Source: Pseudomonadota bacterium
GTDB taxonomy: Bacteria > Bdellovibrionota > Bacteriovoracia > Bacteriovoracales > Bacteriovoracaceae
DNA: 40,929 bases
Direction of reading: 5' to 3'
Assembly (NCBI GenBank): GCA_027487685.1
Contig: JAIYDC010000112.1
Coordinates: 1 to 40,929, forward strand
Positions 16,301-23,593 of the stretch are shown here, piece by piece. Under the pieces are notes generated by a model. It had not been told where the DNA came from, made no database searches, and saw only the letters and a list, made by a program, of their open reading frames with translations. Each line of letters begins with the position of its first letter. Within the stretch, counting starts at the first letter, position 1. Both the position numbers and the translations under genes were made by a program.

Positions 16301-18868
16301 CTAACGGAGTTTCTCTGTGATAATACGCTGCTGGAGGGCAGAACGGTTCTGCGCCAGCCGTGATTCAATCGCCCCTCGGCTGATGTTAAGCCTTTGAATG
16401 ACCGGATTACTTAAAGTTTCAGTAATCATACTTCTCTCAGCGATTGGCCAACGACTTAGGAAACAAGCATCACGCGATCGGCGGTTGATGAGTCGATTAA
16501 TGATATTAGTGTTTGGGAATTGCCGGAGGCATTCGTCAGCGATTCGATGACCGTACTCAAGCATTAACCCATCCAGATTGGCAACCGCCCGTTCACGTAG
16601 CTGGCCCTGAGAGCTATCCAGCCAGGCCCCGAATTCTCCTGCGGAGACAATGTTGTGGCACGCCACCCCTTCAATGAATTGCCCGAACACTGTTGCAGGC
16701 AGGTTATAAAGAAGTGTCATCCCGATAACCTTAAAACCTTGCACCTTACAGTCATTCAAGATTTGCTGGGAGTCGACGACGTTTTTAACCCACGAAAGGT
16801 CTGCCAAGAGTTTGCGACGTGTCTCTCCCTGATCTTGCTGGAGGAACTGAGCAGCGGTTTGAATCTCTATCACTTTCGCGTCGTCGTAGAGTTGACGCCA
16901 GATGCGCACGAAGTGTGGACGGACTTCGGCGGTAAGGAACTTTTCCTCAGAAGCACTCTCTACCCGTCTTTCATCGACCCTGAATGCTCTAATGGTCGTC
17001 AAAACTGCTTCAGGAAGAGCGGCATTAAGACAGTTAAAGAAAGAGCTTATGAGGTAACCGTCCCCCACAGTGAAGGCCCGCCCGGTTGGTGACGCCGTAT
17101 CGCTATGAGAAATGGCAAGACAGCTATTCCAGCTCTCTCCTGCTGATACTCGGATCTGCTCGAGGTTATCCTGAACAAAGGTCTGATACAGCTTGACCGT
17201 ATCTTCCCGGATGGTTTCATAGGGATGGGCATTCGTGTACATACGGAGGAGTTCCTGAGCTTCGACTTCCGGAAGACCTAGAGGCCCAAGTCGCTCGAGG
17301 GTACGCTTGTGGAGTTCTTCGGCGTAGCAACTACTCTCGTTAGGTGATTGATAACAAGTAAGATAGGCCGTACGCGCGAGGGTCGGATTATTGATGTCTT
17401 GCATGAATTCCTGGAGCCGCCCTAAATACTGAGGATCCTCCTTACCCTGAACGAGGTGCCGCTCAAACGAGGTCTTCAGGTGGTCTTTCACAAGAGCATT
17501 CCAACTGTCGCGATTTCCGCCGGTCGCGAGAGTATCACATCCCTGGGCAGTCGTAATGGCCACCTTAGCTCGAAGTTCAGCGCTGATCTGAGAGGCGCGT
17601 TCAGAAATGCACCCTAGAACATTCGCCGTCACATTCGTCGAAAAATCTCCTCGTCGGAAGTACTGAGAGCGCCCAGATGCCCCGGGTCTGGCGCAGTCTG
17701 CGACGGCCTTCAAGACCGCCTCAGAAATTTCACTCGCATTCTCTTGAATCCAACTGGACATCAAGGCAGGCACAGTAAACTCGCGATTTTGATAATAAGA
17801 ACGAGAAACAAAACCGTAATGATCGTTTGAGAGTCCCTCCTTAGCACGGGCCCCGTCAATCCTAAACACGGCCACCGACTCCGCAAAGTTTTCGGTAGGG
17901 TTTGTCTTAGCATAATCACTAACGACTTTCGCCCCAGGGGCCAGTTGCCAGCCTCGCTGGGGCTTTCCGGCGGCGTCAACGTACTCTGTCATAGCAAGCC
18001 CTGAAAGTGACACGTAATCCTGGCGGCTCGAGCGAAATCCTGAAATAGATCCTCGCCCCTCTTCCATGTCAACCTGATGACTGAGTTCATGGGTAATCGC
18101 CTGGTAGATCCATCCATTGTCCTGGGAATAGCTATCAAACGTCAGGCAGCCATCAGTGAGAGTAATAAAGCCACTAGAATAGGCCAGCCCGCACGCGCCT
18201 GCATTAGCACCCTCAAATAGCTCCCCACGAGGAATGCGCTGAATCTGAGTCAGGTAACGAAGGGTGGTGTGGGGGGCCTTTAACATGTAAGAGAGGCGCC
18301 AGAAGGCATAGAGCTCTTTTTCATCGAAGAGATAATTCGAAAACGGGATCGCCTTACCGTTGAACTCTCCAGCACTCATCGACGTCTGCATAGGAACTTT
18401 ATTGTCGGCAGCGAGAAGGTGTCCGAATTTCAGGTACCAAATATAGTGCACATAACCATTTACTTCATCTCCCTTGCCGTAAATGCGATTGAAGACGCAA
18501 GGCACGTCTGTGCAGGAAGAGAAGTCGATGGCCTGTGGATTAGTAAGATCACCGAGTTCACGTCCAAAAGATTTAAGAAAATTCCCCTGGGCCACCGGTA
18601 ACGTAGAGAGATCTATATGTTTCCAGCGGCCTGAAACAGGCCGCCCACGTGTAAATCGACGCTCAAGTTCACGGACCTCTGCTTTCAATGTTTCCACCGT
18701 GAAGACATCTTTCATACACTGGTTCTGGGAACTGGCCAGAGTCCGAAGCAGCGTTCGCTCTGAAGGCGCCGCTTTCTTGTCCCATAGGGTAATGAGAAGC
18801 TCCGGTGACTTCTTTGTACAGGCCCCGAGCATAAGTAGGGCAACCCAAAAAAGATTACTTCTTTTCAT
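16301..18868 (-). CDS. Large HExxH metalloprotease-like lipoprotein (ATLF-like)
   Basis: An 855-residue lipoprotein: signal peptide with lipobox LGAC and lipidated Cys17. A zinc-protease motif HELSHQVD is at residues 260-267 (His260, Glu261, His264), and about 60 residues later NPTENFAESVA supplies a likely third ligand (Glu326 or Glu330). The HExxHxxD...E-FAE arrangement is that of anthrax-lethal-factor-like/PPEP zincins, so a cell-surface endopeptidase is the best call. The C-terminal 500 residues are helical, rich in paired cysteines and not recognised. The gene overlaps the upstream 139-residue lipoprotein gene by 14 bases, so both are read from the same promoter region near 19300. Confidence 0.8.
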   Translation of the reverse strand: MKRSNLFWVALLMLGACTKKSPELLITLWDKKAAPSERTLLRTLASSQNQCMKDVFTVETLKAEVRELERRFTRGRPVSGRWKHIDLSTLPVAQGNFLKSFGRELGDLTNPQAIDFSSCTDVPCVFNRIYGKGDEVNGYVHYIWYLKFGHLLAADNKVPMQTSMSAGEFNGKAIPFSNYLFDEKELYAFWRLSYMLKAPHTTLRYLTQIQRIPRGELFEGANAGACGLAYSSGFITLTDGCLTFDSYSQDNGWIYQAITHELSHQVDMEEGRGSISGFRSSRQDYVSLSGLAMTEYVDAAGKPQRGWQLAPGAKVVSDYAKTNPTENFAESVAVFRIDGARAKEGLSNDHYGFVSRSYYQNREFTVPALMSSWIQENASEISEAVLKAVADCARPGASGRSQYFRRGDFSTNVTANVLGCISERASQISAELRAKVAITTAQGCDTLATGGNRDSWNALVKDHLKTSFERHLVQGKEDPQYLGRLQEFMQDINNPTLARTAYLTCYQSPNESSCYAEELHKRTLERLGPLGLPEVEAQELLRMYTNAHPYETIREDTVKLYQTFVQDNLEQIRVSAGESWNSCLAISHSDTASPTGRAFTVGDGYLISSFFNCLNAALPEAVLTTIRAFRVDERRVESASEEKFLTAEVRPHFVRIWRQLYDDAKVIEIQTAAQFLQQDQGETRRKLLADLSWVKNVVDSQQILNDCKVQGFKVIGMTLLYNLPATVFGQFIEGVACHNIVSAGEFGAWLDSSQGQLRERAVANLDGLMLEYGHRIADECLRQFPNTNIINRLINRRSRDACFLSRWPIAERSMITETLSNPVIQRLNISRGAIESRLAQNRSALQQRIITEKLR

Positions 18869-19274
18869 GGTGAATGATCCTTGAAACGAATTCGCTGTCT
18901 TGAGTATAAATCACGGTAAGCCCCTCTGCCGGACAGGTGAGCTCAAACTCCGCTCGAACATGCCCCTGTCCCTCGGAGATTTTTCTTTCGACCGGCGGAC
19001 AGTCCTTGAACTTATGACGCCAGAACATTAGGAGAGTCTCATCACCCTTTGGATCCTTAAATCCGTGGGTCACAATGTCGCCCTTCACTTGAAACTTTTC
19101 GTTCCCATCGTAAATAAGGATCTTACCATCTTCGAGGGGAATCGGTTTCTCTTCCAAAGGAGCTCCCCTCTCTGCAACAAGTGCCGAGACAGTTGTCTTC
19201 CCGAAGCTAACACCGTCGTTTTTAGCTCCACAGCCCGCCAGGGCCACGAACAAAAGGTAAGTAAAGGCTTTCAT
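18855..19274 (-). CDS. Small lipoprotein, possibly BamE/SmpA-like fold
   Basis: A 139-residue lipoprotein with a clean lipobox (LAGC, Cys15). The mature segment VSFGKTTVSALVAERGAP...GKILIYDGNEKFQVKGDIVTHGF has the helix then beta-hairpin rhythm of BamE/SmpA-OmlA proteins; this is a fold guess, not a family match. Two cysteines (DCPP, LTCP) could form a disulfide. Ribosome site AGGAG lies close to the ATG. It is the first gene of a two-gene unit with the HExxH lipoprotein, overlapping it by 14 bases. Partnership such as folding helper, inhibitor or anchor is possible. Confidence 0.78.
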   Translation of the reverse strand: MKAFTYLLFVALAGCGAKNDGVSFGKTTVSALVAERGAPLEEKPIPLEDGKILIYDGNEKFQVKGDIVTHGFKDPKGDETLLMFWRHKFKDCPPVERKISEGQGHVRAEFELTCPAEGLTVIYTQDSEFVSRIIHHEKK

Positions 19275-19478: not shown

Positions 19479-20291
19479 ATGAAGAAGCTCCTATTCCTTG
19501 GCCCCATCCTCGCTATAGCAGCACAAGCCGAGGTTATAGAAGGCCGAATCCACGCCATCCAGGGCAGTATCGTCAAGCTTGAAAATGGTCGCGTCGCTTT
19601 CCTTGATCAAATCCAGCAGTTCCACTTCAAGAAAAGCGATGCTGTCCGAATCAAGATCGACGATCGGTCTTCAGTCATCACTGTCCACCAGCTCAAGGGC
19701 TTCAAGTCTTCAGTGGATTTGATGGAGATGCCTACCGCTCTTTATCTACAAGAAAGTGACCCTCCTTTTGAACCGACTGTTATTGATGGCCTGAATCAGG
19801 CACGACTGATTTTCGATCGCTCAAACCCCTTTTACAAACGCGTCTCAGAGTGCACCGACCGGGCCCATGTCTGGGCCCATGACGAGTATCGTACCTCCGG
19901 ATCAAAGTCTCTCAAGGCCTTCGTATTTTTCACGGCCTCTTATATCAACTCTGTTCGCTTCAAATGGTGGTTTCACGTGGCCCCGCTGTACAAGGTCAAA
20001 GTCCAAGACGAAGTCCGGGACCTTGTCATGGACCTGCGCTACACCCATCGCCCCATGGGCCTGAGAGACTGGACTGATGAATTCGTATTCACCAAGCGAC
20101 CTTGCAAAGTCACCACCAAGTTTTCTGAGTACGACGTTAATCCTCAGACAGAGGATTGTTACCTGATGATAGAAAGTATGCACTACCGAATTCCAGATGA
20201 GCTTCACCAGCGGGAGCTCACTGGCCGTCTTCGGATTCAGTCCAGCGAGAGCGAACTTCGGATGTCACGCCGTTTTGCCTTCGAGCAGTAG
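19479..20291 (+). CDS. Secreted protein-glutaminase-like enzyme
   Basis: A 270-residue exported protein with a short signal peptide (LLFLGPILAIAAQA, cleavage near residue 17). The C-terminal half carries a Cys-His-Asp triad in the order and context of protein-glutaminase (Gln_deamidase_2) domains: Cys125 in SECTDRAHVWAHDEY, His166 in WWFHVAPLYKV and Asp185 in VMDLRYTHRPMGLRDWTDEF. Such enzymes deamidate glutamine side chains in proteins. The N-terminal 90 residues form a small beta domain, perhaps a propeptide. The strong GGAGG ribosome site and the lipoprotein gene starting 10 bases downstream suggest a two-gene operon. Targets are unknown; host or prey proteins are conceivable. Confidence 0.82.
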   Translation: MKKLLFLGPILAIAAQAEVIEGRIHAIQGSIVKLENGRVAFLDQIQQFHFKKSDAVRIKIDDRSSVITVHQLKGFKSSVDLMEMPTALYLQESDPPFEPTVIDGLNQARLIFDRSNPFYKRVSECTDRAHVWAHDEYRTSGSKSLKAFVFFTASYINSVRFKWWFHVAPLYKVKVQDEVRDLVMDLRYTHRPMGLRDWTDEFVFTKRPCKVTTKFSEYDVNPQTEDCYLMIESMHYRIPDELHQRELTGRLRIQSSESELRMSRRFAFEQ

Positions 20292-20300
20292 GAACTCCGT

Positions 20301-20948
20301 ATGAAAAATCTTTCAGCTTTAAGTCTCCTCTCATCCCTCGTTTTAGTCTCCAGCTGTGGCGGTGAAAGGAATCAGGGAGTGGACCGTAAAATTCCTGCAC
20401 AGTTGGTCGAAGAACAGCTCTCTGAGGGCAGATACCGCGCTCTCCTGAGACCTTTGAACAACCGACTGTCGGGATTCATCCCCACAGGAGTCGTCGATAT
20501 CAGGATTGTTGGTGATAGGGTCGAGGTCCTGACTTTCCTCGACGATGACGCCAAAGTTGCCCATCGACAGGCCATCCAACTCGGCACCAGTTGCCCCACG
20601 ACCTCAGATGACACCAATGCTGATGGAGTGATCGATGGCCCCGAAGCCACACGAGTCTCCGGCGGAGTGCTTATCCCGCTAGACGGCGATCTGAATTCGG
20701 CGTTATCAGAAAAAGATGTGTACCCAGTCGGGAGCGGCTTCACCTATAACGAGAAAGCTTCGCTCAAAGAACTCGAAGTAGACACTCGCGTGCGCACGGG
20801 CCAGAACCTGAACCTAGAAGGCCGTGTCGTTCTAGTCCTCGGAGTCGCCAGGGAGACAGGGTTACCAGAAACAGTGGCCAGCAGTGAATCTCTTCCTCCA
20901 TCAGCTACGATCCCGGTGGTCTGCGGAGTTTTAAAGCGAGTAAACTAA
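20301..20948 (+). CDS. Lipoprotein with an EF-hand-like calcium loop
   Basis: A 215-residue lipoprotein (lipobox VSSC, Cys19). Residues 104-115 form a textbook 12-residue EF-hand loop: Asp104, Asn106, Asp108, backbone at 110, Asp112 and Glu115, within DTNADGVID. The text around it (GTSCPTTSD before, RVSGGVLIPLDGDLNSALSE after) resembles a lipoprotein family I associate with Bdellovibrio-like bacteria, function unknown. Cys98 and Cys208 (TSCP, VVCGVL) may pair. It begins 10 bases after the glutaminase-like gene and is probably co-transcribed. Calcium binding is inferred from the motif only. Confidence 0.75.
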   Translation: MKNLSALSLLSSLVLVSSCGGERNQGVDRKIPAQLVEEQLSEGRYRALLRPLNNRLSGFIPTGVVDIRIVGDRVEVLTFLDDDAKVAHRQAIQLGTSCPTTSDDTNADGVIDGPEATRVSGGVLIPLDGDLNSALSEKDVYPVGSGFTYNEKASLKELEVDTRVRTGQNLNLEGRVVLVLGVARETGLPETVASSESLPPSATIPVVCGVLKRVN

Positions 20949-22154: not shown

Positions 22155-22754
22155 ATGCTCAAAAGATTAATTTGCCTTGCCCTCACGGCAGTCTTTTCGT
22201 TTATGACCTCAGCGCAAACGGAAGGAACAGCGGCCCAGAAAGGCCAGATCTATGTCTCCGCCGGAGGTCACACAGAATTTTATAATCAAATCCAGGTCGA
22301 CGCGACGGGAGGAATGCAGCGCTTCGATCCGGCACCTACTATCGGAGCGGGAGTTAAAACCGCGGTACTCGGTAACTTCCTCTTTTTACCAGAGATCAAC
22401 TGGGTACTACCGCGCAAATCGGGTGAGAAGATTATAAAGAACCTTCTGATGGGCCGGGCCGACCTTGGTTATGATCCCGTAGACTGGCTCCGCATCCGGG
22501 TCGGAACATCACTCATGTGGCTTAATCAGCATGGGAGCGGTGGGGCGGTAAAAATGAACAATGGAAACTCAACTGCGACCTTCTACAACCCGGATCAAAA
22601 TCGCTCAAGCTTCAACTCCACTCTCGATGTGGGGGCCGAGCTTCTCTTGGGCGCGGCTTCATTGCGGCTTCAGACCTATACCTACTCGCCTTTAAAGTCC
22701 GAGCGCCGTCAACTCTCCTACACCCTCTTCCTCTCATACTACTGGGATCGATGA
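22155..22754 (+). CDS. Small outer-membrane beta-barrel-like protein
   Basis: A 199-residue exported protein with a signal peptide (LICLALTAVFSFMTSAQ, cleavage near residue 21). The remainder is a run of alternating strands with glycine turns (IYVSAGGH, PTIGAGVKTAVLGNFLFLPEINWV, WLRIRVGTSLMWL) and ends in LSYTLFLSYYWDR, a typical barrel-like terminus. About eight strands would suit an OmpA/OmpW-size barrel. I do not recognise the family. The stop overlaps the start of the matrixin gene (ATGA), so the two are translationally coupled. Confidence 0.72.
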   Translation: MLKRLICLALTAVFSFMTSAQTEGTAAQKGQIYVSAGGHTEFYNQIQVDATGGMQRFDPAPTIGAGVKTAVLGNFLFLPEINWVLPRKSGEKIIKNLLMGRADLGYDPVDWLRIRVGTSLMWLNQHGSGGAVKMNNGNSTATFYNPDQNRSSFNSTLDVGAELLLGAASLRLQTYTYSPLKSERRQLSYTLFLSYYWDR

Positions 22755-23593
22755 TGACTATGAAATTCATTTTTTTACTAGCACTCTTACTTTCTGCGAC
22801 TGCTCAGGCATGGACCCTGAACAATAACTTCGGCGCCGCTTTTCCCAAAGGCCGAGTAAAGGTTTTTGTGGACGAAGGAACCGTCTGCCCTACGAACGGC
22901 GTGACCTACGAAGAGCTGGAAGGACTGGTTGGCCCAGCTATTAATACGTACTGGAATAAGGTTCCCACCTCGAGCCTGCGTCTTGATGCAGCTGGTTTCT
23001 CACCAGCCTTGTCGACCATCAATCGCGGTCGCCTTTGCTCACCTACCGATGACGACTGCATTGCCGCAGGAGAGGCCGATCCTGAAGGCCTAATCCCGGC
23101 CGTCAACGAGATCGTTATTGCCTGCAATAGTAATACCCTGAACTTCGGTGGTGGGAACGTTTTGGCAGTCACAATTCCCAACAAGTTTTCCGGAAAAAAA
23201 ATTAAAGGCTCAGTCATCCTCATCAATGACACTAGTGGAACCTTCGGAGACTTGTCTCGGTCGGACAAGATTGGAGTCATCGCTCATGAGATCGGCCATG
23301 CCCTGGGCCTGGGTCACTCAGACGAGAATGCCTCCCTCATGTTTTATCGAACCGTTGCCCAGCGCAGCCGCCTTGGTCAGGACGATGTGGACGGAATTAG
23401 CTTCCTCTATCCCATTGGCGGGGACGTCTACGGGCTCTCAGAGGACGGCATCCTGTCTTGCGCAACAATAAATAACGGAGGAAGTGGTCCAGGGGGCCCT
23501 CTTCTTCCGGCCGGCATTTGCCTCGTCCTGATGATTTTCTTAAGTGAGCTGCGCCGCTTATTTAAGCGTGCGAAGGGACGTGCCACGTTTTAG
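22751..23593 (+). CDS. Matrixin-like zinc metalloprotease with C-terminal anchor
   Basis: A 280-residue secreted protease of the metzincin/M10 type. A signal peptide ends near residue 20 (ATAQA). The zinc site is His179, Glu180, His183 and His189 in HEIGHALGLGH, followed by the Met-turn Met197 in SLMF. There is no cysteine-switch propeptide, which is usual in bacterial matrixins. The end is tripartite: Gly-rich linker GGSGPGG, a hydrophobic helix of about 18 residues, then an Arg/Lys cluster (RRLFKRAKGR). This resembles C-terminal sorting signals such as GlyGly-CTERM. The gene overlaps the barrel gene by 4 bases at its start and the convergent peptidase gene by 36 bases at its end. Confidence 0.88.
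   Translation: MMTMKFIFLLALLLSATAQAWTLNNNFGAAFPKGRVKVFVDEGTVCPTNGVTYEELEGLVGPAINTYWNKVPTSSLRLDAAGFSPALSTINRGRLCSPTDDDCIAAGEADPEGLIPAVNEIVIACNSNTLNFGGGNVLAVTIPNKFSGKKIKGSVILINDTSGTFGDLSRSDKIGVIAHEIGHALGLGHSDENASLMFYRTVAQRSRLGQDDVDGISFLYPIGGDVYGLSEDGILSCATINNGGSGPGGPLLPAGICLVLMIFLSELRRLFKRAKGRATF

What the first reader, a model, noticed from the sequence alone, without database searches (positions are those of the whole stretch)
19479..20948. Secreted protein-glutaminase-like enzyme with an EF-hand lipoprotein
A Cys125-His166-Asp185 triad in the right sequence contexts predicts glutamine deamidation of proteins. Deamidases are often toxins or effectors. The adjacent lipoprotein, ten bases downstream, has a perfect EF-hand loop and could be a calcium-controlled partner.
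Basis: partly seen in the sequence, partly recalled or inferred. Interest (0 to 1): 0.5.

Follow-up and report, generated by a model that had tools for sequence, protein, structure and literature searches.

The report
Secreted protein deamidase with SOD-fold partner
A bacterium related to predatory bacteria carries a secreted enzyme that probably changes glutamine to glutamate in other proteins, next to a membrane-anchored calcium-binding protein that looks like a retired superoxide dismutase and probably holds the enzyme; the pair has been copied several times in this genus.

Summary
The 270-aa ORF (19479-20291) is a genuine protein-glutaminase homologue (PF18626, E 1.7e-12). Cys125-His166-Asp185 are invariant in 88 of 88 aligned relatives and align with the active-site region of solved protein-glutaminases. 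The predicted fold matches them (Z 13); in a paralogous pair the match includes the pro-domain of pro-protein-glutaminase. Nine bases downstream lies a lipoprotein whose EF-hand ligands are kept in at least 51 of 52 aligned relatives. The two genes are a real unit: in the listed matches of 26 genus genomes, 74 of 141 deamidase places are followed by the lipoprotein (about 0.15 expected). Read-through fusion models have pTM 0.72 and 0.84, more than I would expect of two independent domains. I read it as a zymogen-type protein deamidase held at the envelope by a SOD-derived, calcium-stabilised lipoprotein. Inhibition or immunity is the main rival. 'Calcium-controlled' and 'toxin' are not shown. 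The deamidase is a new member of a known family; the partner and the paired arrangement are new as far as my searches reach.

The parts
19479..20291 (+). secreted pre-pro protein deamidase (protein-glutaminase family, PF18626), 270 aa plus stop
19479..19529 (+). Sec signal peptide, residues 1-17 (MKKLLFLGPILAIAAQA)
   Evidence: read from the sequence; same kind of N-terminus in relatives; no signal-peptide predictor was run
19530..19763 (+). N-terminal beta-rich domain, residues 18 to about 95, with a poorly ordered linker; likely equivalent of the protein-glutaminase pro-domain (approximate border)
   Evidence: model 1 secondary structure and pLDDT; in the paralogous pair the whole region aligns with pro-protein-glutaminase; in the window's own model it did not align
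19764..20288 (+). papain-like catalytic domain, residues about 96-270
   Evidence: Pfam residues 114-200; VIA Z 13.1 to 2zk9
19851..19853 (+). catalytic Cys125, at the N-terminus of a helix in the model
   Evidence: 88/88; profile alignment to 2zk9; helix
19974..19976 (+). catalytic His166
   Evidence: 88/88; profile alignment to 2zk9
20031..20033 (+). catalytic Asp185
   Evidence: 88/88; profile alignment to 2zk9
20301..20948 (+). lipoprotein, 215 aa plus stop: lipobox, disordered linker, SOD-fold domain
20301..20357 (+). type II signal peptide with lipobox Cys19
   Evidence: Cys19 52/52; read from the sequence
20592..20594 (+). Cys98, likely equivalent of SOD1 Cys57 (disulfide partner of Cys208)
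   Evidence: 52/52; aligned with the invariant SodC Cys
20610..20645 (+). EF-hand calcium loop, residues 104-115, in the place of the SOD zinc loop
   Evidence: order of elements in the model
20922..20924 (+). Cys208 in the CGVL motif, likely equivalent of SOD1 Cys146
   Evidence: 52/52; aligned with SodC 'ACGVI'

Best explanation
A two-gene unit for a secreted protein-glutamine deamidase. The enzyme is exported by Sec as a pre-pro-protein; an N-terminal pro-domain probably keeps it latent, and a Cys125-His166-Asp185 site in a papain-like domain hydrolyses glutamine side chains of proteins to glutamate and ammonia once the pro-part is removed. The downstream lipoprotein is anchored by Cys19 and carries, on a flexible linker, a superoxide-dismutase-fold domain that has lost its histidine metal site; it keeps the SOD disulfide and uses an EF-hand calcium in place of the zinc loop for stability. 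This domain docks on the deamidase and holds it at the cell envelope, so that the enzyme acts near the surface, possibly on prey or scavenged protein. Shown: sequence, family, triad conservation, adjacency. Predicted: folds and complex. Inferred: latency, tethering, target.
For: PF18626 E 1.7e-12. Profile hits to protein-glutaminase 2ksv/2zk9 E 1.6e-4/1.7e-4 and to 8z3i 4.2e-4, with the three residues in register. Fold Z 13.1 to 2zk9 and 8z3i; for a paralogous own-genome pair Z 15.2 to pro-protein-glutaminase over 209 residues from model residue 1, against Z 12.0 and 140 residues for the mature form. Triad 88/88. SOD fold of the lipoprotein: Foldseek 5e-5 (7b4p) and Z 11.2 (7b4o), repeated with the second pair at 1.2e-6 and Z up to 10.9; hhalign to SodC of relatives E 1.6e-4 over 166 columns, and after removal of signal peptides 0.0013 against 0.096-0.77 for nine controls. 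Pairing: 24 of the 26 best genus places, L001-L026; 74 of 141 listed genus places, 0.149 expected; 14 of 46 distinct pairs overlap at stop and start. Fusion pTM 0.72 and 0.84; by my own estimate two independent domains would give about 0.55. A168 and P222 are enriched in paired deamidases (38/41 vs 12/47; 35/41 vs 3/47).
Against: No activity is measured. No PAE or coordinates were returned and no negative-control fusion was run, so the docking site is unknown and the complex unproven; the window pair's pTM of 0.72 is only moderate. The pro-domain match was found in the second pair but not in the window's own model. In the tree 48 of 90 deamidases have no lipoprotein next to them, and 76 of 150 listed lipoprotein places are not behind a listed deamidase (both lists cut), so neither strictly needs the other. 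No lipoprotein column was paired-specific. Adjacent genes duplicated together would also give the distance correlation of 0.89. Sequence support for SOD homology is modest: an unrelated profile (deamidase) reached E 0.03 with signal peptides on, and Pfam names no SOD in any of 52 members.
Confidence: 0.52

Rival explanations
1. The lipoprotein is a cognate inhibitor or immunity protein: it covers the deamidase active site in the producer's envelope and so protects its own proteins; the pair works like an effector-immunity module.
For: Conserved order enzyme then partner, with 14 of 46 pairs overlapping; high fusion pTM; the paired-enriched A168 lies two residues from the catalytic His; enzyme and partner distances correlate, r 0.89; other PF18626 members lie near type IVB secretion genes according to PMC10318531 (passage seen).
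Against: The enzyme appears to have its own pro-domain for latency. 48 of 90 deamidases in the tree lack an adjacent lipoprotein. Pfam shows no further domain, such as a delivery domain, in the window deamidase, and PADLOC and PHROGs give no match. The partner is about as conserved as the enzyme (mean column identity 37%, 33%; the sets differ), not hypervariable.
Confidence: 0.25
2. The lipoprotein is a calcium sensor that switches the deamidase on or off.
For: EF-hand ligands are conserved in at least 51 of 52 aligned lipoproteins and the genes are adjacent.
Against: Single EF-hand loop rather than a pair; it sits where SOD has its structural zinc loop (SOD layout recalled); it is equally conserved in the 22 orphan lipoproteins.
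Confidence: 0.08
3. The lipoprotein is a periplasmic chaperone or export partner needed to fold the deamidase or carry it across the outer membrane, and not a final tether.
For: Same adjacency and predicted complex.
Against: Solo deamidases with the same conserved cysteines exist without an adjacent lipoprotein, though one could serve from elsewhere in the genome.
Confidence: 0.12
4. Two independently acting secreted proteins that merely share an operon.
For: Both families are large and about half of the listed places of each are unpaired.
Against: 74 pairs against 0.15 expected; pairing in two separate deamidase clades; fusion pTM 0.84 in one.
Confidence: 0.1

Closest known systems
Protein-glutaminase of Chryseobacterium proteolyticum (PDB 2zk9, 2ksv; pro forms 3a54, 3a56), Flavobacterium FBPG (8z3i) and Bacteroides helcogenes PG; Pfam PF18626
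   Same: Papain-like fold, Cys-His-Asp in the same register, signal peptide, N-terminal pro-region (pro-regions of known enzymes: PMC9396377 and PMC12791059, passages seen)
   Different: 12 to 17% identity in the structural alignments; invariant W164, which is Ser in 2zk9 and Arg in 8z3i; adjacent lipoprotein partner; several paralogues per genome
Cu/Zn superoxide dismutase (SodC; PDB 7b4o, 7b4p, 3mkg)
   Same: Predicted fold of the lipoprotein, two cysteines in the disulfide places, C-terminal CGV[LI] motif
   Different: Six histidines invariant in 18 SodC of relatives, only His88 at 90% or more in 52 lipoproteins; EF-hand in place of the zinc loop; no Pfam Sod_Cu match
Domain II of copper chaperones for SOD (1ej8, 1qup)
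   Same: SOD fold serving as a binding platform for another protein; Z 10.6 and 10.8. The role is recalled, not from a call
   Different: Eukaryotic, cytosolic, not a lipoprotein and no EF-hand (recalled)
EF-hand and dockerin modules
   Same: Canonical calcium loop; best Pfam EF-hand match 0.0064, one Dockerin_1 match 0.0028 among 52 members
   Different: Single loop inserted in a beta-sandwich, no pair of EF-hands

Membership tests
Protein-glutaminase (PF18626, EC 3.5.1.44) | Score over the family's curated cut-off | tested here: met
   47.9 bits, cut-off 25, E 1.7e-12
Protein-glutaminase (PF18626, EC 3.5.1.44) | Cys-His-Asp triad in the register of solved enzymes | tested here: met
   C125, H166, D185 align with the Cys, His and Asp contexts of 2zk9; 88/88. 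Spatial closeness itself not measured
Protein-glutaminase (PF18626, EC 3.5.1.44) | Catalytic-domain fold | tested here: met
   Z 13.1, rmsd 4.3, 152 residues to 2zk9
Protein-glutaminase (PF18626, EC 3.5.1.44) | Pro-domain N-terminal to the catalytic domain | tested here: inconclusive
   aligned with pro-enzymes in the paralogous pair but not in the window's own model
Protein-glutaminase (PF18626, EC 3.5.1.44) | Deamidates protein-bound glutamine | not testable with these tools
   needs an assay
Cu/Zn superoxide dismutase | SOD beta-sandwich fold | tested here: met
   Z 11.2 to 7b4o; Z up to 10.9 in the second model
Cu/Zn superoxide dismutase | Conserved histidine copper and zinc ligands | tested here: not met
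   one His conserved in at least 90% of 52 lipoproteins, against six invariant in 18 SodC
Cu/Zn superoxide dismutase | Intramolecular disulfide | tested here: inconclusive
   Cys98 and Cys208 are 52/52 and align with SodC Cys; the bond itself was not tested
EF-hand calcium-binding protein | Canonical 12-residue loop ligands | tested here: met
   D104, N106, D108, D112, E115
EF-hand calcium-binding protein | Paired EF-hands in a helical domain, as in calmodulin-type sensors | tested here: not met
   single conserved loop, in a SOD-fold domain
Toxin-immunity module | Partner neutralises the enzyme and producer needs it | not testable with these tools
   needs genetics; unpaired deamidases (48 of 90) speak against a strict need

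The most novel reading that the evidence does not exclude
The lipoproteins are a new class of docking module: superoxide dismutases that lost their copper and zinc site, took up an EF-hand calcium in place of the zinc loop, and became membrane-anchored holders for secreted enzymes in Bacteriovoracaceae, mainly for a multiplied set of protein deamidases but perhaps also for other exported hydrolases found beside orphan copies.
Probability: 0.3. Interest if true: 0.72.

Novelty: new variant of a known kind. Interest (0 to 1): 0.5.

Why it matters
The protein-glutaminases that I met in print are enzymes of Chryseobacterium and Bacteroides studied for food use (15 papers listed, a search that named Chryseobacterium). 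Here they form a multiplied secreted family in relatives of predatory bacteria, which suggests protein deamidation as part of how such bacteria deal with prey or foreign protein. The partner would be a clear case of an enzyme fold reused as a docking module, with one structural metal exchanged for another, and the pairing makes a direct binding test easy.

Tried and rejected
Single-sequence search of the PDB gave nothing at E 10; the profile was needed. NCBIfam, PADLOC and PHROGs gave no match for either protein at E 1, and the deamidase had no match in the phage collection, so nothing supports a phage origin; the lipoprotein was not searched there. Pfam listed no SOD match for any of 52 lipoproteins at a limit of E 10 (HMMER's filters drop most matches above 0.1); the fold came from models. 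Profile comparison of lipoprotein and SodC is weak once signal peptides are removed (0.0013) and is quoted with controls; a comparison of lipoprotein and deamidase profiles gave 0.03. The idea that lipoproteins always go with deamidases was rejected: 76 of 150 listed places are not behind a listed deamidase. A search for lipoprotein columns specific to pairing found none. Calcium switching was considered and set low. Literature: searches for protein glutaminase with Bdellovibrio, Bacteriovoracaceae with deamidase, Bdellovibrio with deamidase and predation, and protein glutaminase with predatory bacteria each returned 0 papers; Gln_deamidase_2 returned 1, PMC10318531, of which passages were seen. 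A search for EF-hand, zinc loop, superoxide dismutase and SodC returned 15 papers, none of the 10 listed on this subject by title and start of abstract; another, on SOD-like proteins with calcium, returned 6, seen as a listing, of which one describes a Cu/Zn-SOD fused to a propeller lactonase in Deinococcus (PMC12362111). 'Not in print' rests on these searches of an open-licence library only.

Full report
Observation. The first scores 47.9 bits to PF18626, Gln_deamidase_2, against a cut-off of 25. The profile of 34 relatives finds the solved protein-glutaminases 2ksv and 2zk9 at E 1.6e-4 and 1.7e-4 and 8z3i at 4.2e-4; Cys125, His166 and Asp185 fall on the Cys of 'GCYARAH', the His of 'WSYHVA' and the Asp of 'IIDPS' in 2zk9. 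That the active site of these enzymes is Cys, His and Asp is stated in passages of PMC9396377; that it is these very residues is recalled.

Conservation. In A2 the three residues are invariant in 34 of 34 rows. In a larger set they are invariant in 88 of 88 (41 paired, 47 solo). That set came from 94 representatives (80% identity) of 105 distinct deamidases in the fetched loci; 6 were left out: L036 (very divergent, though C, H and D hold in A2), L017 (broken by a stop), three rows under 230 residues, and L101 (downstream gene not covered).

Distribution. The window protein matches 44 of 98 genomes of relatives at E 0.001, among them 26 of 26 of its own genus (own genome included), with 2 to 12 matches each. 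PF18626 occurs in 179 of 290 genomes drawn from the phylum (175 over the cut-off) and in 0 of 14 control genomes, so the domain is common in the phylum; the own genome has 6 copies over the cut-off. Of 136 related stretches in named genomes the best 80 were kept as 78 loci; most bear titles of MAGs called Bacteriovoracaceae or Bacteriovorax. The lifestyle of this genus is not known from any call.

The pair. Of the best places in the 26 genus genomes (L001-L026), 24 have a homologue of the window lipoprotein directly downstream on the same strand; L025 (G020) and L026 (G023) have none. In L017 the deamidase itself is broken. In the lists, each cut at 150 rows, 74 of 141 genus deamidase places are followed by a listed lipoprotein and 67 are not; 76 of 150 lipoprotein places are not behind a listed deamidase. 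Because the lists are cut, some of the unpaired may have an unlisted partner. By chance about 0.15 such pairs would be expected, with gene number taken as 0.95 per kb. That script found pairs in 25 of 26 genus genomes; the missing one, G023, has a pair in L061. In 46 distinct pairs the gap runs from -17 to 23 bases, 14 of them overlapping; distances of the two proteins correlate at 0.89 (2,000 permutations, at most 0.17) and 29 of 46 share the nearest neighbour, though shared descent of neighbouring genes would cause much of that. In a tree of 90 deamidases (4 of the 94 left out), all 27 of the window's clade are paired and 15 of 16 of a second clade, 48 rows are solo, and the label needs 3 changes. 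In the own genome three of six copies are paired (window, C115, C123); the regions around the other three show none.

The lipoprotein. Pfam gives only weak EF-hand matches. The lipobox Cys, Cys98 and Cys208 are 52/52, and the EF-hand ligands 52 or 51 of 52. The model of the pair, read as one chain, matches Cu/Zn superoxide dismutases over about residues 298-472: Foldseek 5e-5, VIA Z 11.2, rmsd 3.4 over 126 residues. A second pair from the own genome, on contig C115, gives the same: Foldseek 1.2e-6, VIA Z 10.9, rmsd 2.5 over 116 residues. These searches used two-domain models; the lipoprotein was not folded alone. The profile comparison with 18 SodC proteins of relatives, found by PF00080 (one near-copy left out), gives E 1.6e-4 over 166 columns with the SOD cysteines in register and 1.9e-6 with the larger set, over the first 83 aligned columns, signal peptides included. 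Without signal peptides it is 0.0013, against 0.096 to 0.77 for nine controls: reversed and five column-shuffled SodC profiles, the deamidase profile forward and reversed, and SodC against deamidase. E-values here are for single comparisons. Six histidines are invariant in those SodC; in the lipoproteins only His88 is kept in at least 90%. Which SOD ligand His88 would stand for is not settled. The EF-hand lies between Cys98 and the next strand, where SOD1 has its zinc loop (SOD1 layout recalled). The own genome has no PF00080 match. The lipoprotein family is found in 27 of 98 relatives, 26 of them the genus, and in 25 of 290 genomes of the phylum: 18 of the genus, 1 more of its family, 4 of another family, and 2 with weak matches around 3e-4 (where only 8 candidates a genome were scored).

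The enzyme model. The window pair's model has mean pLDDT 87.1 and pTM 0.72; Cys125 starts a helix, His166 lies in a following long strand, Asp185 just after the next. VIA gives Z 13.1 to 2zk9 and 8z3i. The second model has pLDDT 88.1 and pTM 0.84; there the enzyme aligns from its first residue with pro-protein-glutaminase, Z 15.2 over 209 residues, while the mature form gives 12.0 over 140. I take the N-terminal domain as the equivalent of the pro-domain; in the window's own model it did not align. No coordinates were returned, so the distance between the three residues was not measured.

Complex. With a flexible linker, two domains placed without mutual confidence should give a pTM near 0.55 at these lengths (own estimate). 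0.72 and 0.84 exceed this, the second clearly. Two positions are enriched in paired enzymes: A168, two residues past the catalytic His (38/41 against 12/47), and P222 (35/41 against 3/47). They may mark contact sites, or shared descent. In the lipoprotein no such column was found (42 paired, 22 orphan).

Mechanism. Known protein-glutaminases are made as pre-pro-proteins; that of C. proteolyticum is activated by removal of the pro-sequence, while that of B. helcogenes is already active with it, though less (passages of PMC12791059). Since the enzyme seems to carry its own pro-domain and many copies lack an adjacent lipoprotein, I prefer a tether over an inhibitor, but only by a modest margin. 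The EF-hand is most simply a structural site.

Verdict. The enzyme is a new member of the protein-glutaminase family. The SOD-derived EF-hand lipoprotein and the expanded paired arrangement are a new variant, not found in the papers I could search.

Noticed in passing
L151:5712-7436 with L151:4526-5482; L162:5781-7514 with L162:4765-5580: Orphan SOD-fold lipoproteins lie about 200 bases behind a secreted protein of about 575 aa; the L151 one resembles fungalysin metallopeptidase weakly (E 0.004, below the cut-off).
   Followed up: partly
L154:5370-5933: A peptide deformylase (E 5e-46) that begins with a signal-peptide-like stretch lies just ahead of an orphan SOD-fold lipoprotein.
   Followed up: partly
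L164:4197-5036 and the SodC gene at L164:7906-8430 (same gene as in L173): An orphan SOD-fold lipoprotein lies about 3 kb from a true SodC gene.
   Followed up: no
L148:4928-6268 and L159:3903-5241: Another deamidase paralogue is followed in two genomes of the genus by a secreted protein of about 142 aa without Pfam match, beside genes that look like a TolQ/ExbD set (read from N-termini, not scanned).
   Followed up: partly
window 16304-18868 and 18858-19274: Divergent upstream genes, an 855-aa lipoprotein with a sub-threshold M90 metallopeptidase match and a 139-aa lipoprotein, lie upstream of the pair in L001-L010; relatives of them lie elsewhere in the fetched flanks of 4 and 3 further of the 24 paired loci.
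   Followed up: partly
window 22751-23593: A secreted matrixin-type metallopeptidase (PF00413, E 3.5e-12) lies nearby.
   Followed up: no
L146:7012-7704, L152:4718-5491, L163:4201-4923: Orphan SOD-fold lipoproteins keep the same neighbours (a hemerythrin-like and a LysE-like gene by their N-termini, not scanned) in three genomes.
   Followed up: no
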